Shown one piece after another: positions 11,599 to 28,801 of a DNA stretch of 32,058 nucleotides. Origin of the DNA: Candidatus Woykebacteria bacterium RBG_13_40_15 (GTDB taxonomy: Bacteria; Patescibacteriota; Microgenomatia; Woykebacterales; RBG-16-39-9b); assembly GCA_001816655.1 (NCBI GenBank), contig MHCP01000019.1, positions 1 to 32,058 on the forward strand. The letters run 5' to 3'. Numbering within the stretch: the stretch's first letter is position 1; the number at the start of each line of letters is the position of its first letter. The notes below the pieces were generated by a model that was not told where the DNA came from, did no database searches, and worked only from the letters and a program-made list of their open reading frames with translations. The translations under genes and the position numbers were made by a program.

Positions 11599-12009
11599 AT
11601 GAAACTTCTTTACGCTTTGCTTTGTGACAATGCTTTTTTGTCCATCGATAAGAAAGTAAATATAATTGGGGTTTTTGAAACTATTGGGGCCTCTAAATTT
11701 CCAATAACTCACCCCAAGTTTGTTATCGTGGGTTCAATAGCTCCTGATAAGCGTAAATTCAAGATGAGTTTGAATATTGTCTCCGAAAAAAGCAAGGAAG
11801 CAATATTGGGAAATCTTCAGGAACGTGAGGTAAGCTTGCCCGAAGAAAGTAAAGATCAAAATTTCAATTTTATAATTGAAGTTGTCAACGCAAGCTTCAA
11901 TGAGCCAGGAATCTACAAAGTTGAAATTTCAATTGATGATAAAGTAGTAGGAGAAATACCGTTTAAATTAGTTGAAGGAAGTTTAAGTTCTGTTGGGTCT
12001 CCCTCTTAA
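11599..12009 (+). CDS. Conserved hypothetical protein (DUF6941-like)
   Basis: N-terminus MKLLYALLCDNAFLSIDKKVNIIGVFETI resembles the DUF6941 family. Confidence 0.6.
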   Translation: MKLLYALLCDNAFLSIDKKVNIIGVFETIGASKFPITHPKFVIVGSIAPDKRKFKMSLNIVSEKSKEAILGNLQEREVSLPEESKDQNFNFIIEVVNASFNEPGIYKVEISIDDKVVGEIPFKLVEGSLSSVGSPS

Positions 12010-12878
12010 AGCTCGCCAATCTTTATTGGTTCTTCCATTCTTCCTTGTATTAGATTTAAGTATTTTTCTGTAGTTGCTAGACGTTTGTGGCCGGCAAGTT
12101 TTGATACTAAAACTAAAGATGTTCCGGCCATCAGGTGATGGGCGACAAATGTGTGGCGAAGATCATTTACTTTAGCATTGCGTATTCCAGCCAGTTTAAA
12201 GTAGCGGTCAATTGCAGTTCTAATGTTTCTTACCAGAAGAGGTTTTCCGGTCTTTGTAATGAATAATGTTTCATTTTTACTTTCAGGACGGACATCCAGA
12301 TATTTTTTCAAAGAGGCTTCTGCGGCCTTGTTCAAAGGAACAGTTCTTTCAGGGTAGCTTTCACCAGCTGGGACATGCACTTCCCCTAGCTTGTTACTAG
12401 TACTAAAGTTTATATCCGCTAATTGCAATCGTGCCAGCTCACCAATTCGTATTCCCGTTTGAAGCAATAATTCTATAATTGCACCCATGCGAAAGTCCCC
12501 TCGAGCAGCGTCTCGGAGTGCTCGGTACTCTGTTTTTGATAAAATTCGAGGGGGTTTCATTTCAAACTTGGGGTGTTCAAGTAGAGAAGCGGGGTCGTCA
12601 GTAATGTAATCATTAATTTTCAAAAATCTAAAGAAAGTTTTTGTGGAATTTGTTTTTCTTGAAATACTCTTTGGGGTATAGCCTTCTTTTGAAAGCTTGG
12701 CCATAAAAGCCTGTAAGTCTTTAGTAGAAATGTCTTGAATACTTACCTTGTTCAATTGAGCCAAAAAGTCTCTTAGTTGCTCAATATCCTTACCATACGC
12801 TAAAACAGTCGCACTACTGCGGCCTTGACTTTTCAGGTGATCAATAAATTTTCCGTGGGCTTCATGAATTTTTGACAT
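12006..12878 (-). CDS. Tyrosine recombinase / integrase, XerC/XerD-like
   Basis: SAM-like N-domain; TGIRIGELARL, DLRHTFVAHHL, LAGHKRLATTEKYLNL catalytic motifs. Confidence 0.9.
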   Translation of the reverse strand: MSKIHEAHGKFIDHLKSQGRSSATVLAYGKDIEQLRDFLAQLNKVSIQDISTKDLQAFMAKLSKEGYTPKSISRKTNSTKTFFRFLKINDYITDDPASLLEHPKFEMKPPRILSKTEYRALRDAARGDFRMGAIIELLLQTGIRIGELARLQLADINFSTSNKLGEVHVPAGESYPERTVPLNKAAEASLKKYLDVRPESKNETLFITKTGKPLLVRNIRTAIDRYFKLAGIRNAKVNDLRHTFVAHHLMAGTSLVLVSKLAGHKRLATTEKYLNLIQGRMEEPIKIGEL

Positions 12879-14046: not shown

Positions 14047-14460
14047 GTGGAATTTATTGACGTTTCAGCTGCAATTATATTTTCAGGAAATAAAGTTCTA
14101 ATTGCCCAGAGAAATAGGAAAAGTTTTATGGGTGGGAAATGGGAATTTCCCGGAGGTAAGGTCGAAAAAGGCGAGACTGGGGAAGAATGTTTAAAAAGAG
14201 AAATTTTTGAGGAATTCAGGGTCGAAATAAAGGTAGGTAAGCTACTTACTAAAGTGGAATATGAGTATGACGGTGTAATGAATGTAAGATTGAACCCATA
14301 TTTTTGTAAGATAAATAAAGGGACCCTAAAGGTTTTAGAGCATGAAAATGTAGCTTGGGTTTTGCCAAACCAACTTAAGAATTATGATTTGGTACCTGCC
14401 GATAAGGAAATAACTGCGATCCTTCTAAAGACATCGAAGGATTTACAAATTAGCGACTAA
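14047..14460 (+). CDS. NUDIX hydrolase (MutT-like)
   Basis: GGKWEFPGGKVEKGETGEECLKREIFEEF Nudix box; GTG start. Confidence 0.9.
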   Translation: MEFIDVSAAIIFSGNKVLIAQRNRKSFMGGKWEFPGGKVEKGETGEECLKREIFEEFRVEIKVGKLLTKVEYEYDGVMNVRLNPYFCKINKGTLKVLEHENVAWVLPNQLKNYDLVPADKEITAILLKTSKDLQISD

Positions 14461-19012: not shown

Positions 19013-19903
19013 TTAAGCAGTACGGGCGAATGGGGCGTAAACTCGAGTTGTCGATTGGCAGGCGTGACCCAGGAGTGCCTGAACGTTACGTAACGGAGCT
19101 CCCCCATTCAGCATATGGGTAGCGAAGCTGTGGCGCAAGGTGTGCGGGGTAACCGGCTTAGCGATTGCGGCGGCCTTTGCGTAGCCCTTCAGGATCAGCC
19201 AGAAGCCCTGCCGCGTCAGACGCTCCCCCCGCCGGTTGACGAAGAGGGCCGCTTGGTGCTTGTTACGCACCAGACGCGGCCGGCCGTCGTCCAGGTACTC
19301 CTCCAGCGCCTGGAGCGCGTCCTTGTGGATAGGGATCGTGCGCTCCTTGGACCCCCTTCCCACGCAGCGGATGTGGGGGACGCGCCGGTTCATGTGAAGG
19401 TGGTTCACGTCCAGAGACACCAGCTCGGTAACCCGCAGGCCGGTGGCGTAGAGCAACTCCAGCATCGCCTTGTCCCGTTTCGCCTCCGGTGTGACGAGAC
19501 GAGCCGGCTGCTCCAGGAGCTCGTCCACCTCGCGGATCGACAGCGGTTTGGGAAGGGACTTTGGGACCCGGAACCCTACGTTCTCGGTGGGGTTGTGCCC
19601 TACAATCCCTTCGACCTGATGGAGGAAAGCGAAGAATGCTTTCAGGCTGACTATCTTCCGGGTGACCGTCGCTGCCTTGTAGTGCCGTTCCTGCAACTCC
19701 GAAATATAGCCACGAATCAAAGCTTCGTCGACTTTATTCCAGGGTAGAGAGGTTCCATCAGCGTTGGTGGCAGTCCGAAGATATCCCCAGAGCTGATGAA
19801 GGTCAGCTTTGTAGGCTAGAGCTGTGTTATCAGCGAATAGCATTCTTTCCTGAATGTGCCTAAGAAATGCTGTGACTTCGACGTCCACAACTTGTGCAAT
19901 CAC
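19013..19903 (-). CDS. Tyrosine recombinase XerC/XerD-like, GC-rich
   Basis: ATGLRVTELVSLDV, HTLRHSFATHML, LLGHACQSTTRVY; GTG start with SD gggaggtgagcag. Confidence 0.9.
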   Translation of the reverse strand: MIAQVVDVEVTAFLRHIQERMLFADNTALAYKADLHQLWGYLRTATNADGTSLPWNKVDEALIRGYISELQERHYKAATVTRKIVSLKAFFAFLHQVEGIVGHNPTENVGFRVPKSLPKPLSIREVDELLEQPARLVTPEAKRDKAMLELLYATGLRVTELVSLDVNHLHMNRRVPHIRCVGRGSKERTIPIHKDALQALEEYLDDGRPRLVRNKHQAALFVNRRGERLTRQGFWLILKGYAKAAAIAKPVTPHTLRHSFATHMLNGGAPLRNVQALLGHACQSTTRVYAPFARTA

Positions 19904-20056
19904 CTGCTCACCTCCCAGGAAAATGGAGAATCTAAACTAACGGTTAGGTGTGCGTTTATTCCCTCACTCTCTTCATGCCGAAAATGTACGCTTCTATAAA
20001 GAAAAAGTCAAATTCATTTACAATTAACGTCTTCTTGAGGTAGAATTTGCTTCATA

Positions 20057-22273
20057 ATGAAAAAATTAGTTTTAATTGACGGTCATGCAGTTTTTCACCG
20101 TGCTTACCATGCATTGCCCCCACTAACAACCTCAAAAGGTGAACTAGTAAACGCTGTTTTTGGATTCACTAGTATGTTACTTCGGGCAATTGCAGATATA
20201 AAACCAGACTATATTGCAGTCGCTTTTGATACTTCCGAGCCGACATTTCGCCACCAAGAATACACGGCCTACAAGGCCCAAAGAATTGTAGCTCCCGAAG
20301 AACTACACGAGCAAATGCCGAGAGCAAAAGAAGTTGTAGAGGCTTTAAATATTCCAATTTTTGAACTAGCGGGATACGAAGCTGACGATATTATCGGGAC
20401 TTTGGTAACTCAAAGTGCAAAATTCAACCCGCCTACCGGACGGGTAGGAACTCGAAACGATTTAGAAGTAATTATCGTTACTGGTGATAGGGATACACTT
20501 CAGTTGATTAGACCCGGTGTAAAAGTTTACTCGCCAGGTAAAAGCTTTTCTGATGTGGTTTATTTCGATCAAAAAATAGTAAAAGAAAAGTATGGTTTGG
20601 AACCGGCACAATTGATCGATTTTAAAGCGCTGGCTGGAGACCAAAGCGACAACATCCCAGGGGTTAGAGGGATAGGAGAAGTAACCGCAAAAAAACTTTT
20701 GCAAGGCTTTGAAAGTCTCGAAAATATTTACAAAAATCTTAATAAAATCCCAGAAAAGACCAGAAATTTGTTAGCTAAAGATGCTGAGGTAGCAGCGCTT
20801 TCTAAGAAATTGGCGACAATTGATGTTCAAACTCCGGTTAAATTAGATCTAGCAAAATGCGTCCTGAAAGACTATGACCAAAAGGCAGCGGAAGAGTTGT
20901 TTTTAGAACTTGAGTTTCGAAGTTTGATACCAAAGTTACCTGGGTTTAGCAAAAGTAAAGTTGCCGACAATCCAGCTGGTCAGGGAACCCTATTTGAAAA
21001 ACAAAAGGAAGAGGAAACAGGAAGAAGTGATGATTTGGAAAAAGTCCTGCGGGAAATGGAAAATTATGGTGTTTTAATCGATACTAAGAAACTCTCTAGC
21101 CTCGCAAAAGAAATCGACGGAAAGCTTTCTTCCTTGGAAAAGGAAATTTATAAGCACGTTGGCCACGAATTTAATTTAAATTCGCCAAAACAGCTTTCAA
21201 CCGTTCTATACGACGAATTAAACTTGACACCAGAGCGTTCGACCCGAATAAAGACCCATAAATCCACCGACGAAGCCACACTTTCGACCATGGTTGAGGC
21301 TCACCCGGTCATTGAGCCAATTTTGCAATACCGAGAGCTTTTTAAACTAAAATCCACCTATGTTGACGCGCTGCCAAACCAAATTGGCCAGGATGGCCGT
21401 ATTCACACCCATTACCACACTGATATCACGAGAACCGGCCGACTTTCTTCGAAGGATCCAAATCTACAAAATATACCAGCAAGAAGCGAGCTTGGGGAAA
21501 AGGTTCGTTCGGCTTTCATAGCACCGTCGGGTTGCCTTTTACTTTCCGGCGATTATAACCAGATAGAACTGCGCGTCATGGCACATATTAGTGGTGACGA
21601 AGCTCTAAAAAAGGTATTTGAAGAGGGCCAGGATATTCATACTGAAGCTGCCGAAGCTGTTTTAGGTAAAAAACACGGTGAGGTGACAAAAGAGGATCGT
21701 CGAATCGCAAAAATAGTAAATTTCGGCATAATGTATGGTATTTCTCCCTATGGCCTAGCTACGCAACTAAAAATTGAGCCTGCGGCCGCAAAAGAGATAA
21801 TAGACCGCTATTTTGAGCGTTTTCCAGGCGTCCGAGAGTGGGTAGGGGCGATACTGCGAGAGGCGTACGAAAAAGGCTTTGTAGAGACTTTGGGAGGCTT
21901 CAAGAGGTATGTGCTGGAGCTTCGAAGTAGCAACCAAACGGTACGCAGGCTTGGAGAGCGAGTTGCAGTAAACTCTCCAATCCAAGGCACAGCTGCGGAT
22001 ATTATTAAAAAAGCAATGGTCAATATCAGTAAGCAGTTAGCACCCGCCCGCCAGGCTTCGCCAGGCGAAGTGGGCGGGGAAAGCAGAAAGCAGACAAAGA
22101 TGATTTTGCAGGTGCATGATGAGCTAGTTTTTGAAGTACCGGAAGGTGAATTGAAAGAAGTTACCCCAATTATTAAAGACTGCATGGAAAACTGCTTTCC
22201 TCTCTCTATCCCGCTTGTTGTTGAACTTAAAGTGGGGAAGAATTGGGGAGAGATGAAACCTGTTGAAGTTTAA
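20057..22273 (+). CDS. polA: DNA polymerase I (5'-3' exonuclease + polymerase; no 3'-5' exonuclease domain evident)
   Basis: IDGHAVFHRAYHALP, VTGDRDTLQL; polymerase motifs DYNQIELRVMAHIS, RRIAKIVNFGIMYGIS, LQVHDELVFEVP. Confidence 0.95.
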   Translation: MKKLVLIDGHAVFHRAYHALPPLTTSKGELVNAVFGFTSMLLRAIADIKPDYIAVAFDTSEPTFRHQEYTAYKAQRIVAPEELHEQMPRAKEVVEALNIPIFELAGYEADDIIGTLVTQSAKFNPPTGRVGTRNDLEVIIVTGDRDTLQLIRPGVKVYSPGKSFSDVVYFDQKIVKEKYGLEPAQLIDFKALAGDQSDNIPGVRGIGEVTAKKLLQGFESLENIYKNLNKIPEKTRNLLAKDAEVAALSKKLATIDVQTPVKLDLAKCVLKDYDQKAAEELFLELEFRSLIPKLPGFSKSKVADNPAGQGTLFEKQKEEETGRSDDLEKVLREMENYGVLIDTKKLSSLAKEIDGKLSSLEKEIYKHVGHEFNLNSPKQLSTVLYDELNLTPERSTRIKTHKSTDEATLSTMVEAHPVIEPILQYRELFKLKSTYVDALPNQIGQDGRIHTHYHTDITRTGRLSSKDPNLQNIPARSELGEKVRSAFIAPSGCLLLSGDYNQIELRVMAHISGDEALKKVFEEGQDIHTEAAEAVLGKKHGEVTKEDRRIAKIVNFGIMYGISPYGLATQLKIEPAAAKEIIDRYFERFPGVREWVGAILREAYEKGFVETLGGFKRYVLELRSSNQTVRRLGERVAVNSPIQGTAADIIKKAMVNISKQLAPARQASPGEVGGESRKQTKMILQVHDELVFEVPEGELKEVTPIIKDCMENCFPLSIPLVVELKVGKNWGEMKPVEV

Positions 22274-22426
22274 TATCCGGGGAATAGATTGGACAAAATC
22301 AAAATTGTCCGACTTGTTCCGAGCTTGCCGAAGGGTATTTTAATAGTGAGTATAGTCGAATTATTTATACTGAGTTTTATCGAAGTATTGCAGCCTGATT
22401 GATAAAGCAGTAAAATTTCCCTGCCA

Positions 22427-24064
22427 ATGAGGCTTACTAAATCGTACAAGTTAAAAATCTTACCTACCAATGAGCAGGTTAAGTTCCTTGAAGATTATTT
22501 CTCAAGATTCGCTAAAGCGGTAAACTTCTATATAAGTAAAATTGGCTTGCTTCGAAAAGACTATGAGTGGCTATCTAAGGACAAGCAGAAAAAAGGAAAG
22601 TGTGCGAATTGTGGCCAAAATACCGATCTTAGTCACAAATTCCTGCCTGCTAACTCCTTAGTTTGCCCCCGCTGCTATAATTACGAAGTTGGCGACCTTT
22701 TTATTAGAAAAAAGCTATATGCAACCAGAATAGGCCCAAATAAAAGAAAAAGGGGCAGGTTTGATGTTCGAGATGCAACAAAATTGCCGGGGACGGATTA
22801 CGCCTTAGCCTTCAAGAGAGCAGCCGATACTATCAAGGGACAAAAGAAACAACTGGGAAAAGTCAAAAAGCAGCTAGTTTTTACAGAACGACGCTTAAAT
22901 GAATGGATTGAGGTGCTTGAAAATAAGGAAACCCTACTACAAGATGGCAAAAAAGCCCTAACAAGATTTACACTTCCTAAAAAACCAGGACAGAAAGTAG
23001 AAAGATTTAAGCACATCCTTTATAAAGACAACCCATCCCAAGGAAAAACAGAATCCCAGATCAAAGGAATAATCAAGGCTTTGGATAGGACTGTTCAAAG
23101 GCTTACTAAAAGGTTAAAAACTGCGGACATTAAATTCAATGGGGACATTGTTGATCTTCACTACTCAGCAGTAAAAAACATTATAGAAAAATTCACCGAA
23201 ATAAGCCTTGATTTAAAAAAGCAACAGTTTCCAATTGCAGCAGAAAATGTAGTTTCTAAGAAAAGTAGGGGTTGGATTATTGAAAAGATAAACGAGATGA
23301 AAAAGGGCAAACCCTTATATCCGCTTCTTCTGAAAAAGAAAAACGATTTTTACCTAAGCTACCCAGTCCGATTGGAGCTAGAAGAACCAAAAGAGGAAAA
23401 AGTCACTAAAGCAATGGGGATTGATCGGGGAGTAAATCAAATAGCTGTTACTGCAGTTATTGACAGGCCTACAGATAAACCTCATCATATTGAATTTTAT
23501 TCAGGAAAAGACTTAATAAAAAGCAAATTAAAATACCAGCTAATAAGGAAGAAATTTACTGGAACAAAAAGTGTTAATAAACGCAGGGCAAAATTTGGAG
23601 AAAAGGTAGCAAGGGGATCTATGTATGTTCTCCACGATATTTCAAGGCAGATAGTAAATCAAGCAAAAGAACAAAAACCAATTGTTATTGTTATGGAAGA
23701 TTTAAAAATGATTCAAGGCGAGAAAAGGGTGAAAAAAGGAAGTGCCGTGAGGGAAAGAAAAGTCAATTTTCTTCTCTCCAACTTTAACTATGGCCGATTA
23801 CAAAGTTTAATTAGTTATAAGGCTTTACAAGAGGGAATCCCAATTAGGTTTATAAAACCTGAATATACATCCCAAACCTGTTCAAAATGCAGGGAAATAG
23901 GCAAAAGGACTAAGGGGTTTTTTCAGTGCGTCAATCCAAAATGCAACCATAAAATGAATGCAGATCTCAATGCCGCCATTAATATTGCAAACTCATATTG
24001 TAAGGAAGATTCATTTACAAAAAAGCCAAAAAGTGCTATATTGCAAGCGACGACGAGCTCTTAG
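22427..24064 (+). CDS. Cas12f/Cas14-like (type V-F) RuvC nuclease of the TnpB/Cas12 superfamily
   Basis: RuvC-I MGIDRGVNQIAV, RuvC-II IVIVMEDLKM, zinc ribbon CSKC...CVNPKCNH, RuvC-III NADLNAAINIAN; extra N-terminal CANC...CPRC zinc finger; CRISPR-like repeats and anti-repeat immediately downstream. Confidence 0.8.
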   Translation: MRLTKSYKLKILPTNEQVKFLEDYFSRFAKAVNFYISKIGLLRKDYEWLSKDKQKKGKCANCGQNTDLSHKFLPANSLVCPRCYNYEVGDLFIRKKLYATRIGPNKRKRGRFDVRDATKLPGTDYALAFKRAADTIKGQKKQLGKVKKQLVFTERRLNEWIEVLENKETLLQDGKKALTRFTLPKKPGQKVERFKHILYKDNPSQGKTESQIKGIIKALDRTVQRLTKRLKTADIKFNGDIVDLHYSAVKNIIEKFTEISLDLKKQQFPIAAENVVSKKSRGWIIEKINEMKKGKPLYPLLLKKKNDFYLSYPVRLELEEPKEEKVTKAMGIDRGVNQIAVTAVIDRPTDKPHHIEFYSGKDLIKSKLKYQLIRKKFTGTKSVNKRRAKFGEKVARGSMYVLHDISRQIVNQAKEQKPIVIVMEDLKMIQGEKRVKKGSAVRERKVNFLLSNFNYGRLQSLISYKALQEGIPIRFIKPEYTSQTCSKCREIGKRTKGFFQCVNPKCNHKMNADLNAAINIANSYCKEDSFTKKPKSAILQATTSS

Positions 24065-24257
24065 CTATATGCTTCTAGAGTTTTGAAAGGACTGCGTTGC
24101 ACAGTAGTTAAAGTGGATTCGCTTTAGGTTTCGTCGCCGTTTAAAAGCGATGGGAAAGTTTTAGCCTTTTTAGACTAAACCGGCCTGATCACCACAATTC
24201 TTAGTTCTTCTTGCGGGGGTTTTAATCCGCGAATCTTGACAATCTTTATTCAAAAAG
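24065..24257 (+). ncRNA. Candidate tracrRNA / guide-scaffold RNA of the Cas12f-like locus
   Basis: Hairpin AAAGTG-GATT-CGCTTT at 24110-24125 resembling the Cas14a1 tracr stem; anti-repeat AATTCTTAGTTCTTC (24196-24210) pairs with repeat GAAGAATTAAGGAAT at 14 of 15 positions including G-U. Confidence 0.65.
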
Positions 24258-24366
24258 TAGGTTCGGCTTCTTAAGAAGAATTAAGGAATGCAACTCCTCC
24301 TTTTCTAGTTGTTCCCTTATATTTTTTAAGCAACAGAACCTCCTAGGAAGAATTAAGGAATGCAAC
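24258..24366 (+). CRISPR. Minimal type V-F-like array: repeat 24258-24294, spacer 24295-24329 (35 nt), repeat 24330-24366
   Basis: Shared 20-nt 3' core GAAGAATTAAGGAATGCAAC at 37/35/37 spacing; repeat 2 GCAACAGAACCTCCTAGGAAGAATTAAGGAATGCAAC matches my recollection of the Cas14a1 repeat at 26/37 aligned positions, including the GGAATGCAAC 3' end; repeat 1 is degenerate in its 5' half. Confidence 0.7.
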
Positions 24367-24706
24367 AAGTACTCTAGAAACTGAATAGTAGGTAAGGCCT
24401 AAAAACTTGCAGGCAAATAAGCAAAGTACTAAAATCCTCTTAAAATCGAACAGCTTTATCAGAAGTTGAGAAGAACTTTTTATTTTCTTGACACTCTATC
24501 CCATCAGCCCTAAAAGCCACATTACTCACTCTCAAATTCTTATTTCTGCTTCGCTCAAAGGGTCGTTTTTCTTTTTGGTAAAAATTCTATTTTAAAAGTT
24601 TGATTCTTAAAGATTGAATTTCCCGATAACTATTTCCACTTAATGTTAAAATTGTTTTAGAGATCGACCATCCGTCTGCTCGGATTAGTCATAGGAAGGA
24701 AGGCTG

Positions 24707-25540
24707 ATGAAGAAGAAACACTCGGATCTGCCGATCCAAAAAGTAGTTACGGCTCGAGGGTCGGTGGTTAGCTATATTGAGAAGGGCGAGGGGCCACCCC
24801 TCATCATAGTCCCGGGCCTTTTCCAGAATGTCAATGGGCTGCGACATCTCATCATCGAATTGTCGCAACACTTTCGGGTGATTTGCTTAGCAGTACCAGG
24901 CAGTGAGGGCTCTAGCTTTCTTCCTGCCTACACCAATGAAGCAATTGGAAGATGGGTCGAGGAAGCGCTTGAGTCTTTGGGGGTCCGAAAGGCGTTGTTC
25001 GTCAGCGTATCGCTCGGAGCGATACTAGTTGTGTCGGGTATCGTTGCTTTCAAGCGGGTGAAAGTATTGGGCTATGTAGCACACGAGCCTGTTACCCGGC
25101 TTACCCATACCCGGGTTTGGTGGAGACTGCTTTATCAGACGAACCGACTCCTTTACGAAAGGAGGCTTGGCTTCTTGTCCCTGACGATGATCTGGGTCAT
25201 AAGATTCGTCCTGGCCCACGTTTTTCGCCAGGGCTTCGCTCGAGCGCTTCTGGGAACTCCAGTGCGAGTCTTTCCACCAATGGGAGACGTACTGAGCGAG
25301 CAGCCAACGGATGAGCTGGCAGTAGCGGCCGCCAAAAAAGTCCCAACGCTGGTTGTACTATCAAGTGAAAGAACCAGGGGCCTGATTGAGCAGGAACAAA
25401 TGATGCGGGCAGTTGGACGGATGAGCGTGGTGGGTCTTGAAACTCTCAGCGGGGCTAAACACTTTCTCCGTCGAGAAGACCAGCGGAACTTGGCAAGGCA
25501 TGTTGTCGGGTTTGCTCGGAGGCGCAGGGTTATACTCTGA
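24707..25540 (+). CDS. Alpha/beta hydrolase-fold protein, GC-rich
   Basis: GEGPPLIIVPGLFQNVNGLRHLI, nucleophile-elbow-like FVSVSLGA, catalytic-His-like GAKHFLRRE; SD aggaagg. Confidence 0.7.
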   Translation: MKKKHSDLPIQKVVTARGSVVSYIEKGEGPPLIIVPGLFQNVNGLRHLIIELSQHFRVICLAVPGSEGSSFLPAYTNEAIGRWVEEALESLGVRKALFVSVSLGAILVVSGIVAFKRVKVLGYVAHEPVTRLTHTRVWWRLLYQTNRLLYERRLGFLSLTMIWVIRFVLAHVFRQGFARALLGTPVRVFPPMGDVLSEQPTDELAVAAAKKVPTLVVLSSERTRGLIEQEQMMRAVGRMSVVGLETLSGAKHFLRREDQRNLARHVVGFARRRRVIL

Positions 25541-25557
25541 CGTGAAAATCCGCCTTT

Positions 25558-25605
25558 GTGGCCGTCTCGAACCTTCTAGGTGAGGGACGGCCATCTGGTT
25601 TATCC
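25558..25605 (+). terminator. Hairpin terminator after alpha/beta hydrolase
   Basis: TGGCCGTC ... GACGGCCA 8-bp inverted repeat followed by TCTGGTTT. Confidence 0.55.
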
Positions 25606-25618
25606 TAAAAATTCTAGT

Positions 25619-27775
25619 TCAAATCAGTGAAGCTCTTACAATTAGGCGGGAGTCGAGTTTGCCTACTGGCCAGCAGGTCATTAAAGTAACTACTTCGTTA
25701 TCAGTTGGATCCAGCACACTTACATCTGTTTTCCCCACTACTTTCCGCTCCGTTACGGAATAATTAAATTTCTGACCCTCTTTGACTAAAGTTAACCTGT
25801 CTCCAGGCGACAGATTAGAAATTTTTGAAAACTCATAGGCATAATAAGGAGCTGCTTGCGTACCATCTGTGGAATGGCCAAATATAAAAATATTGCTACC
25901 TTGTCCGGGCAGGGCAGTTCCTTTATAATGCCCAAGCCCAGTTCCGAGCGGAATAGCGTAACCTTCTTTACTAGCCCCATCTACATTTTCAGTGATTGGA
26001 ACTTTTAAGCCCAGCTTCTCAATGTATAAGCCAAATTTTTGGAAATTTTTGTCAATAACAGCTTGGGCTGGTTTAGGCGGACTTTCAGCCGCGGCTGCTT
26101 TTGGGGGACCATGATTAGCAGTGCTATTTATTCCGCCGCTTAATACTAGAGCAAGGGAGGAAAATATAATAATGGTTAAAAATACACGGCCAAGTAAACG
26201 TATATTATGCACCGACTTCTTTGCTGTTAATTTCTTCAAATTTCCGTATTTCCAAAAATTAAATGCAGCTAGACAAGTTAAAAGAATAGTTAGCATAATT
26301 AGGTCACGATTTGTTGATGCCTGATTAGTTCCCCGTACACCAGTTTCCGGCAGGCCCGTCGAGACTCCCATGACAAAAGTTTTGTCGTACGTTTGGGCCG
26401 GAAAACCACCGTCGGTTACTCTGACAGTAAAGGTGTAAGAGGAATTGTGAGTTGGTATCCCATAAATTAAACCAGAAGAAGAAAGAGAGAGCCCTGGTGG
26501 TAGGGAGCCGCTTACCAAACTAAATGTGTAAGGAGATGTGCCGTATGATTCATCAAGACTGACCGAATAACTTCTGCCGATTAAAGCAGCAGGCAAAGTC
26601 TGGTTGTTGGTGATGCTAAGAGTGGGAAGTTCTTCTGATCGCCATATCTGTAAACAACCGACTAGATTCGAATTCGAAAAGCCGGCGTAAATGCGACCTT
26701 TAAAAAAAGTTAGAGCATATAGAGCATAATTATATTGGTCGCCAAATCCATCCTCTCCCATTTGGGTTGCATCTACGCCATCAGTAACCCAAAGACCGGC
26801 ACTACCAGTGGATACCCTTGTTCCAGAGTAGGCCACGCTGTTGACAATTGTCGGTTGGAGAGAAGGCCAAATGTTGGGTAAAGTGTCAAACTCGCCAGTC
26901 AAATTAACTTTTGACCAACTTTCTCCACCGGTGCTATAATAAAGCTCCAAGCCGTCAGTATTGTTTTCGGTCCCAGCGTAAAGAACACCTAAATAAGATA
27001 CAATTACGTACACACCATCGTTGTTAGTATTACCCAAGCCCCCACTACCGACTTGTGTCCAATCCGTGCCATTTGAAGTACGGTAAATTGAAGCGCCATC
27101 CGTGGAGTCCTCCGTACCGGCATAAAGATAATTTCCAAAGGAATATAACGTCATAACCCCCGTATCATTTGCACTTAAATCATCAACTGCAACTTTCTCC
27201 CAGTCGGTACCGTTTTGCGTTCTCCAAATTTGCCCACCAGTTAGTTTTCTAGTGCCAGCATATAAATACCCGTTAAAAATCTCTAAGGCGACAGTTTGGT
27301 AATTATAAAAAACCGGATCAGCTTCAAAACCTGCTCCGACAACGTCGACCCAGGTTTCCCCATCGCTACTTCTTAAAACTTCAGCCGGCTTGGAAATATC
27401 ATCAGAACCAGTAGCGGCATAAAAATAGCCGCCAAACTCTTCCAAATCTAAAACGTAGTGATCATCATTACTGAAAGAAGCTACTTCGCTCCAAGTACCA
27501 GTATCTCCGGTAGAACTTTTATAGATTGAAGCACTACCAGTAGCGGGATTGCCTACACCGGCGTAAAGAGTGTTATTAAAAATTCCAAATCGCAAATGCA
27601 CATCTCTTCCGTTAAGTCCGCTATCGTCTACTACTTTTTCGAAGTTTAAGGAAGGAGGGGAGATAATATAAGCTTTTGTGGGAGAGGGCAAAAACAAAGC
27701 TAATATGCCTATGGGTAAAGCAAAAAAGACGATGAGAAATAATAACTTATTTTCTAGAGCAGCGAATTTTTTCAT
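25619..27775 (-). CDS. Secreted propeller-like + Ig-like repeat protein with internal LPETG sorting signal fused to a C-terminal sortase domain
   Basis: Repeated YAGT...WRTSNGTDWTQVG blocks; LPAALIGRSYSVSLDESYGTSPYTFSLVSGSLPPGLSLSSSGLIYGIPT (putative Ig); LPETG (26339-26353) + TM + KK; sortase IFGHSTDG, TLMTCWP, SRLIVRASL. Confidence 0.85.
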   Translation of the reverse strand: MKKFAALENKLLFLIVFFALPIGILALFLPSPTKAYIISPPSLNFEKVVDDSGLNGRDVHLRFGIFNNTLYAGVGNPATGSASIYKSSTGDTGTWSEVASFSNDDHYVLDLEEFGGYFYAATGSDDISKPAEVLRSSDGETWVDVVGAGFEADPVFYNYQTVALEIFNGYLYAGTRKLTGGQIWRTQNGTDWEKVAVDDLSANDTGVMTLYSFGNYLYAGTEDSTDGASIYRTSNGTDWTQVGSGGLGNTNNDGVYVIVSYLGVLYAGTENNTDGLELYYSTGGESWSKVNLTGEFDTLPNIWPSLQPTIVNSVAYSGTRVSTGSAGLWVTDGVDATQMGEDGFGDQYNYALYALTFFKGRIYAGFSNSNLVGCLQIWRSEELPTLSITNNQTLPAALIGRSYSVSLDESYGTSPYTFSLVSGSLPPGLSLSSSGLIYGIPTHNSSYTFTVRVTDGGFPAQTYDKTFVMGVSTGLPETGVRGTNQASTNRDLIMLTILLTCLAAFNFWKYGNLKKLTAKKSVHNIRLLGRVFLTIIIFSSLALVLSGGINSTANHGPPKAAAAESPPKPAQAVIDKNFQKFGLYIEKLGLKVPITENVDGASKEGYAIPLGTGLGHYKGTALPGQGSNIFIFGHSTDGTQAAPYYAYEFSKISNLSPGDRLTLVKEGQKFNYSVTERKVVGKTDVSVLDPTDNEVVTLMTCWPVGKLDSRLIVRASLI

Positions 27776-27866
27776 CTGGCCCTCAAGAACCTATTCTAAT
27801 TAAACAATATACGTTGTCGTCTGATTTATCAAGGTGATAAAATAGGCTAGCTTACAATAAATATAT

Positions 27867-28718
27867 ATGCCGGAACTTCCAGAAGTTGAGACAATCAAGC
27901 GAGATATTGAAAAAAACCTAATCGGTAAAAAGATACTTGATGTTTGGACGGATTCGCCAAAGCAAGTTCAACCTAACATAGATGGATTTAAAAAAGAGAC
28001 AGTTGGCAAAAAGTTTAAAGATGTAAAAAGAAGAGCTAAGATTCTTATCTTTCACTTGGAAGACGGTACTCCAATTATTGCCCACCTGAAACTAAGCGGA
28101 AGGCTTCTTTATAGGAATCAAACTGATAAAGCCGATGCATTTACGAGAATTATCATCAAACTTGGCGAGGGGAAAGAGATCCGTTTTGCGGACCTACGCC
28201 GCTTTGGTTGGATCCGCCTTTTGAAAGACGATGCTAATTTAAAGGAATTTTTGGATGAATTTGGAATCGAGCCTTTTACCCCTGACTTCACTTTGGAAAA
28301 TTTCAAAAAAATAGTGAGTAGCAAACCGACCAAAATTAAACCTTTGATAATGGACCAAAAGCAAGTTGCTGGGGTAGGCAATATCTACTCTGATGAATCT
28401 TTGTGGTGCGCGAAAATTCATCCGGAGAGGTCGGCGAAAAGTTTAAGCAGCGACGAAATCAAAAAACTTTATGATTGTATTTTAGAGGCCTTGAAACAAG
28501 GTATAGCCGATCGGGGAACTTCTGTTGATCAATATGTCGACTTACAAGGACAAAAAGGGAAACACGAACAAAACTTACAGATTTTTAGGAAAAATGGGCA
28601 GCCCTGCCCGCGTTGCGGTACAATAATCAAGAAAATTCGCGTTGGTGGTCGAGGGACACATCTCTGTCCAAATTGTCAGAAATCACGAGGAGTCCTTGAT
28701 CACAAGTTTACCTTTTGA
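27867..28718 (+). CDS. mutM: Formamidopyrimidine-DNA glycosylase (Fpg/MutM)
   Basis: MPELPEVETI start, VAGVGNIYSDESLW, C-terminal zinc finger CPRC...CPNCQ. Confidence 0.95.
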   Translation: MPELPEVETIKRDIEKNLIGKKILDVWTDSPKQVQPNIDGFKKETVGKKFKDVKRRAKILIFHLEDGTPIIAHLKLSGRLLYRNQTDKADAFTRIIIKLGEGKEIRFADLRRFGWIRLLKDDANLKEFLDEFGIEPFTPDFTLENFKKIVSSKPTKIKPLIMDQKQVAGVGNIYSDESLWCAKIHPERSAKSLSSDEIKKLYDCILEALKQGIADRGTSVDQYVDLQGQKGKHEQNLQIFRKNGQPCPRCGTIIKKIRVGGRGTHLCPNCQKSRGVLDHKFTF

Positions 28719-28801
28719 TATACAAGTTAGTATATGGATACTATAATAGAGACCACTATGAAAATAAGAGTACTTGTTTTTATTCAAAATAGGAATTTCT
28801 C

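What the first reader, a model, noticed from the sequence alone, without database searches (positions are those of the whole stretch)
22427..24366. Compact type V-F-like (Cas12f/Cas14) CRISPR locus with a one-spacer mini-array
A 545-aa nuclease with intact RuvC D/E/D residues, an additional N-terminal zinc finger and a C-terminal zinc ribbon is followed by a structured non-coding region and a repeat-spacer-repeat unit of 37/35/37 nt. The second repeat aligns without gaps to the 37-nt Cas14a1 repeat (GTTGCAGAACCCGAATAGACGAATGAAGGAATGCAAC, from memory) at 26/37 positions, with the same GGAATGCAAC end. No cas1, cas2 or tnpA is visible in the window. A sub-550-aa RNA-guided nuclease of a divergent branch would be of mechanistic and tool interest.
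Basis: partly seen in the sequence, partly recalled or inferred. Interest (0 to 1): 0.92.

Follow-up and report, generated by a model that had tools for sequence, protein, structure and literature searches.

The report
Orphan Cas12f2 locus, possible natural single-guide
A small, episymbiont-type bacterial genome carries a compact CRISPR DNA-cutting enzyme of a known family (Cas12f2) that has lost its memory-making genes, keeps only one spacer, and whose two guide-RNA parts appear to have been joined into one RNA by a small deletion, as engineers do by hand.

Summary
The 545-aa ORF (22427-24064) is a full-length relative of Cas12f2/Cas14b (NCBIfam NF049972, E 4e-116, positions 3-519 of 524), with RuvC D333/E424/D513. 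It is not an IS605 TnpB. A 60%-identical protein in another genome of the same class (L003) sits in a complete cas1-cas2-cas4-cas12f2 locus with a homologous tracrRNA and a six-repeat array of nearly the same repeat, which settles the assignment. In the window the system is an orphan: no cas1 anywhere in a 97.6%-complete genome, and only two repeat copies. One detail was missed. [quoted passage not shown] Compared with L003, 58 nt (leader and the first ~10-12 nt of repeat 1) are missing, so tracrRNA, the 3' 27 nt of the repeat and spacer 1 are contiguous. The fused RNA folds into a 15-bp repeat:anti-repeat stem, and the repeat end TGCAAC matches a conserved hairpin loop GTTGCA. This looks like a natural single-guide RNA, similar in layout to engineered Cas12f sgRNAs. 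Its function is inferred; decay or misassembly is not excluded, and no spacer target was found. A new, rare member of a known kind with an interesting RNA twist.

The parts
22427..24064 (+). cas12f2 effector gene, 545 aa, RuvC D333/E424/D513, N-terminal Cys4 finger (C59, C62, C80, C83) and C-terminal zinc ribbon in the TNB domain (C485, C488, C501, C506)
24050..24264 (+). tracrRNA-encoding region, overlapping the last codons of cas12f2 and ending at AGGTTC; homologous along its length to the tracr region of L003 (RNA ends inferred, not mapped)
   Evidence: alignments
24091..24108 (+). hairpin ACTGC-GTTGCACA-GTAGT; loop GTTGCA (24096-24101) is the exact complement of the repeat end TGCAAC, resembling the AR:R 1 pairing of Un1Cas12f1; loop identical in L003, stem pairable in L003 through G-U changes
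   Evidence: comparison with PMC8053092
24197..24223 (+). anti-repeat ATTCTTAGTTCTTC...GGGGGTTTT, pairs with the repeat (full length with repeat 2; 15 bp with repeat 1 in cis)
   Evidence: duplex energy -33.1 against -19.1 +/- 3.0 kcal/mol in shuffles, 0 of 1000
24265..24267 (+). fusion junction: 3 nt where L003 has 61 nt (rest of leader plus the first ~10-12 nt of the first repeat)
24268..24294 (+). 3' 27 nt of repeat 1, TTCTTAAGAAGAATTAAGGAATGCAAC, joined in cis to the tracrRNA
24295..24329 (+). spacer 1, 35 nt, no origin found
24330..24366 (+). repeat 2, 37 nt, complete, 31/37 identical to the L003 repeat; probably the leader-distal terminal repeat

Best explanation
This is a stand-alone type V-F2 locus: an intact Cas12f2 nuclease followed by its tracrRNA and a one-spacer CRISPR remnant, in a ~0.98-Mb genome that has no Cas1. 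It descends from a complete cas1-cas2-cas4-cas12f2-tracr-array locus of the kind still present in the relative L003. [quoted passage not shown] One transcript would then contain scaffold, repeat and spacer 1 in order. Most likely (inferred) it works like an engineered Cas12f single-guide RNA: the anti-repeat at 24197-24212 pairs with the repeat in cis, the hairpin loop GTTGCA pairs with the repeat end TGCAAC, and a Cas12f2 dimer is guided by spacer 1 to cut DNA next to a 5' T-rich PAM. The guide cannot be updated, so immunity would be frozen to one target. Shown here: protein family, catalytic residues, tracrRNA homology, the fusion in the assembled sequence, predicted pairing, absence of cas1. 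Inferred: expression, RNA ends, dimerisation, PAM, cleavage, and any benefit to the host.
For: Family: full-length Cas12f2 profile match, E 4e-116, 389 bits, against 132 bits for TnpB; PADLOC Cas12f/Cas14b E 9e-80 and 1e-73. Sister locus: 60%-identical protein in cas1-cas2-cas4-cas12f2, with five 35-38-nt spacers and six repeats nearly identical to those here. tracrRNA: alignable from 24050 to AGGTTC, then a jump to the middle of repeat 1. Anti-repeat pairing far better than shuffles; unique GTTGCAC in a conserved hairpin loop. Orphan state: no Cas1 in the genome with 9 of 14 controls positive; only two repeat copies. Precedent for function of such a layout: Un1Cas12f1 sgRNA uses only 17 nt of repeat (PMC8053092); trimming or removing the outer tracrRNA-crRNA stem keeps or raises activity (PMC8763643). 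Cas12f2 enzymes cut dsDNA with a T-rich PAM (PMC7229846).
Against: The protein scores below the curated NF049972 cut-off (389 against 450), although the sister in a complete operon does too (361). The fusion is seen in one assembled genome and only one relative was available, so its direction cannot be proved and misassembly cannot be excluded. The whole fused RNA folds only slightly better than shuffles (z -1.6). No spacer target was found, no promoter stands out, and the structure model was too poor to use.
Confidence: 0.66

Rival explanations
1. A decaying locus: the adaptation genes are gone, the array has collapsed and the deletion at the tracr-repeat boundary is damage without function. 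The ORF is intact only because the loss is recent.
For: No cas1, two repeat copies only, repeat 2 differs from the L003 repeat at 6 of 37 positions, no spacer target found, and none of the nine other genomes of the order carries a match to the effector.
Against: ORF intact with all catalytic and zinc residues. The tracr hairpin loop, anti-repeat and the 3' 27 nt of the repeat are preserved, and what is missing is mostly the part of the repeat beyond the 17 nt present in the Un1Cas12f1 guide.
Confidence: 0.27
2. Ordinary dual-guide Cas12f2 in which the tracrRNA acts in trans on a crRNA made from repeat 2 and the sequence after it; the partial repeat 1 is irrelevant.
For: Repeat 2 is complete and pairs over its whole length with the anti-repeat.
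Against: No third repeat closes a second spacer; in L003 the last repeat is the degenerate end of the array. Repeat 1 keeps the identical 3' part and adjoins a spacer of normal length.
Confidence: 0.12
3. An autoregulatory or other non-defence guide (as tracr-L for Cas9) in which the fused RNA directs Cas12f2 to its own or another host promoter.
For: A natural single guide of this kind is known for type II-A, where tracr-L represses the cas promoter (PMC11417352). Mini-arrays with diverged repeats can be regulatory (own knowledge of the field).
Against: Spacer 1 matches nothing else in the genome at up to 3 mismatches in 21 nt, and has no seed of 6 or more at the start of the 22150-22500 promoter region.
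Confidence: 0.05
4. IS200/IS605-type TnpB with its omega RNA, mistaken for Cas12f.
For: Shared RuvC and zinc-ribbon domains; matches the TnpB profile over 162-522 at 132 bits.
Against: Cas12f2 profile scores far higher and over the full length; no tnpA in the window; single copy in the genome; the sister is in a cas1-cas2-cas4 operon with an array.
Confidence: 0.02

Closest known systems
Cas12f2 / Cas14b (type V-F2), e.g. Mi1Cas12f2 (Cas14b4), Mi2Cas12f2, AuCas12f2
   Same: Full-length profile match, compact size, tri-split RuvC plus TNB domain, tracrRNA between effector gene and array, 37-nt repeat
   Different: Below the curated score cut-off of the Cas12f2 model (as is its sister L003); no adaptation genes; one spacer; tracrRNA fused to the first repeat
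L003 (genome G010, same class): complete cas1-cas2-cas4-cas12f2 locus
   Same: 60% identical effector, homologous tracrRNA, same 3' 20 nt of repeat, spacers of 35-38 nt
   Different: Has adaptation genes, six repeats, an intact first repeat and a 61-nt stretch where the window has 3 nt
Un1Cas12f1 (Cas14a1) and its engineered sgRNAs
   Different: Clear sequence similarity only in the C-terminal part; in nature tracrRNA and crRNA are separate; here the joining is in the genome
TnpB with omega RNA (IS200/IS605)
   Same: RuvC and zinc-ribbon domains; a single continuous guide RNA
   Different: No transposon ends or tnpA; guide comes from a CRISPR spacer next to CRISPR repeats
tracr-L of Streptococcus pyogenes Cas9
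   Same: A natural single-guide RNA in a CRISPR locus
   Different: Type II, made by an alternative promoter, targets the cas promoter; the spacer here does not match its own promoter

Membership tests
Cas12f2 (type V-F2) | Full-length match to a Cas12f2 family profile, better than to TnpB | tested here: met
   NF049972 389 bits over 3-519/524; guided_TnpB 132 bits; PADLOC Cas14b E 1e-73
Cas12f2 (type V-F2) | Score above the curated NF049972 cut-off (450 bits) | tested here: not met
   389 bits. The sister in a complete cas operon also fails (361), so the cut-off appears to exclude this branch; it is a database naming threshold, not a biological feature
Cas12f2 (type V-F2) | RuvC D/E/D catalytic residues and C-terminal zinc ribbon | tested here: met
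   D333, E424, D513, C485/C488/C501/C506; TNB domain PF07282 E 2e-20
Cas12f2 (type V-F2) | Associated CRISPR array | tested here: met
   One spacer between a partial and a complete repeat; full array in the sister
Cas12f2 (type V-F2) | tracrRNA with anti-repeat between effector gene and array | tested here: met
   Homologous region in two genomes, pairing beyond shuffles
Cas12f2 (type V-F2) | Adaptation module cas1/cas2/cas4 (present in some loci, not required) | tested here: not met
   None in the window; no Cas1 in the genome
Cas12f2 (type V-F2) | RNA-guided dsDNA cleavage with a T-rich PAM, acting as a dimer | not testable with these tools
   Needs biochemistry
IS605 TnpB | tnpA partner, transposon ends, several copies | tested here: not met
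   Single copy in the genome; no tnpA in the window; flanks are host genes and no transposon signature was seen
Natural single-guide RNA | tracrRNA, repeat and spacer contiguous in one transcript with a stable repeat:anti-repeat stem | tested here: inconclusive
   Contiguity and a 15-bp stem are in the sequence; transcript ends and activity unknown

The most novel reading that the evidence does not exclude
A type V-F effector that uses a genome-encoded single-guide RNA, produced by deletion of the boundary between tracrRNA and first repeat. It would be a natural reversion from a dual-guide CRISPR system to a one-RNA, omega-RNA-like state, working without adaptation genes and possibly without repeat processing.
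Probability: 0.4. Interest if true: 0.6.

Novelty: new member of a known kind. Interest (0 to 1): 0.42.

Why it matters
If the fused guide is functional, nature has made the construct that engineers build for Cas12f: one RNA with a shortened repeat:anti-repeat stem. That would give a ready sgRNA scaffold for an under-explored subfamily. It would also show that the step from one guide RNA (TnpB) to two (Cas12) can run backwards once adaptation is lost. Even if it is not functional, the window locus and L003 make a useful pair of Cas12f2 loci whose tracrRNA, anti-repeat and repeat can be read by comparison.

Tried and rejected
TnpB reading: rejected by profiles and the sister operon. Degenerate third repeat after repeat 2: best local score 8, reached by 87% of shuffles. 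Self-targeting or autoregulation by spacer 1: no match in the genome, no promoter seed. Spacer origin in viruses: three 18-mer hits for spacer 1 and one for the sequence after repeat 2; none extends meaningfully (best is 19 nt) and totals are 23-24 of 35-38; phage BLAST gave only hits with E about 4; all treated as chance. Repeat end in viral contigs: seven single copies, no Cas12f2 in them. More relatives: two genome-contig scans and three viral contigs protein scans found no close relative; about 1200 genomes of the phylum gave only G010. The control genomes do not contain the family, so true rarity is not measured exactly. AlphaFold with two sequences: pLDDT 43, discarded. Rfam: only tRNAs. 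My first estimate of the deletion (~79 nt, notebook) was wrong; the count is 61 nt against 3 nt.

Full report
WHAT IS THERE. The ORF at 22427-24064 encodes 545 aa and is open throughout. Its best family is Cas12f2 (NF049972: E 4e-116, 389 bits, profile positions 3-519 of 524). The general TnpB profile scores 132 bits over residues 162-522. PADLOC puts it with Cas12f/Cas14b. Pfam finds the Cas12f1-like TNB domain. The catalytic residues are D333, E424 and D513, and both zinc sites are intact. The N-terminal Cys4 site corresponds to the zinc finger of REC1 described for Cas12f1 (PMC8053092), so it is not an extra feature. The score is below the curated 450-bit cut-off. The relative in L003 also scores below it (361 bits) although it sits in a textbook cas operon, so the cut-off appears simply to leave out this branch.

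THE SISTER LOCUS. A scan of 374 genomes of the class found one relative, 60% identical. Its locus (L003) reads cas1 - cas2 - cas4 - cas12f2 - non-coding region - six repeats, with five spacers of 35-38 nt. The repeat, ATTGCAGAACCTCTTAAGAAGAATTAAGGAATGCAAC, matches the window's repeat 2 at 31 of 37 positions, and the last 20 nt are identical. This makes the type V-F2 assignment secure without relying on recalled sequences.

THE tracrRNA. The non-coding region after the gene aligns between the two genomes from 24050 to 24264. Its anti-repeat (24197-24223) pairs with the full repeat 2 at -33.1 kcal/mol, against -19.1 +/- 3.0 for shuffles (0 of 1000 as good). A hairpin at 24091-24108 presents the loop GTTGCA, the exact complement of the repeat end TGCAAC. 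The loop is identical in L003 and the stem stays pairable there. It resembles the AR:R 1 pairing reported for Un1Cas12f1, in which a stem-3 loop pairs with the crRNA repeat (PMC8053092).

THE FUSION. In L003, 61 nt separate the tracrRNA end AGGTTC from CTCTTAAG inside the first repeat; in the window the gap is 3 nt. The missing piece is the leader and the first ~10-12 nt of the first repeat. The joined RNA forms a 15-bp repeat:anti-repeat stem in cis (24198-24212 with 24273-24287) and leads directly into spacer 1. In Un1Cas12f1 only 17 nt of repeat are in the guide, and removing the outer tracr:crRNA stem in engineered sgRNAs keeps or raises activity (PMC8763643). The layout is therefore compatible with function, but the overall folding energy is not exceptional (z -1.6), and function was not tested. 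The deletion is the simpler direction of change because tracrRNA and crRNA are separate in known Cas12f loci, but two loci cannot prove it.

ORPHAN STATE. No cas1, cas2, cas4 or tnpA was found among the window ORFs scanned. There is no Cas1 in the genome, with 9 of 14 control genomes positive. There is one effector copy and two repeat copies. In related genomes polA is followed by a formamidopyrimidine-DNA glycosylase gene and other cargo; in the window the Cas12f2 locus, an alpha/beta hydrolase and a sortase-domain protein lie between polA and that glycosylase. The locus therefore sits in a variable segment. None of the nine other genomes of the order has a match to the effector.

SPACER. Spacer 1 has no second match in the genome at up to 3 mismatches over 21 nt, no seed in the gene's own upstream region, and only chance-level matches in viral and phage collections.

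MECHANISM. Most likely the nuclease is guided by spacer 1 through the fused RNA, as an sgRNA-programmed Cas12f2 that cuts DNA next to a 5' T-rich PAM. The PAM and cleavage are taken from tested Cas12f2 proteins (PMC7229846), not shown here. The memory cannot be updated. The main rival is a decaying locus.

VERDICT. A real, rare Cas12f2 locus and a new member of a known kind. The possible natural single-guide RNA is the part worth following. It rests on one assembled genome.

Noticed in passing
window 19013-19903 (-): Tyrosine recombinase gene (Phage_integrase) in a stretch of 62% GC, against 34-44% in most of the surrounding region (19700-28799, apart from 24600-25999); a second one lies at 12006-12878 (-). 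Possible recent acquisition of the first.
   Followed up: partly
window 24707-25540 (+): Alpha/beta hydrolase gene next to the array with about 50% GC, higher than its neighbours; no counterpart found next to polA in related genomes.
   Followed up: partly
window 25619-27775 (-): 718-aa protein with a C-terminal sortase domain fused to an N-terminal region with weak resemblance to DUF6242 and a putative Ig domain; an unusual combination.
   Followed up: no
window 14047-14460 (+): NUDIX protein that matches the PADLOC candidate-defence model PDC-S07 (E 1e-45) between two tRNA-Met genes; probably a housekeeping NUDIX enzyme.
   Followed up: no
L027 226-1059 and 3254-4081: A related genome (G098) carries two formamidopyrimidine-DNA glycosylase genes in the segment after polA; L028 and L030 also show two matches there. 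The window has one counterpart, at 27867-28718.
   Followed up: no
L003 3444-3524: The stretch between tracrRNA and first repeat in the sister locus contains GAGGTCGG...CCTC and TTGCGTGTTTAAGAGGT, which look like leader or old repeat pieces.
   Followed up: no
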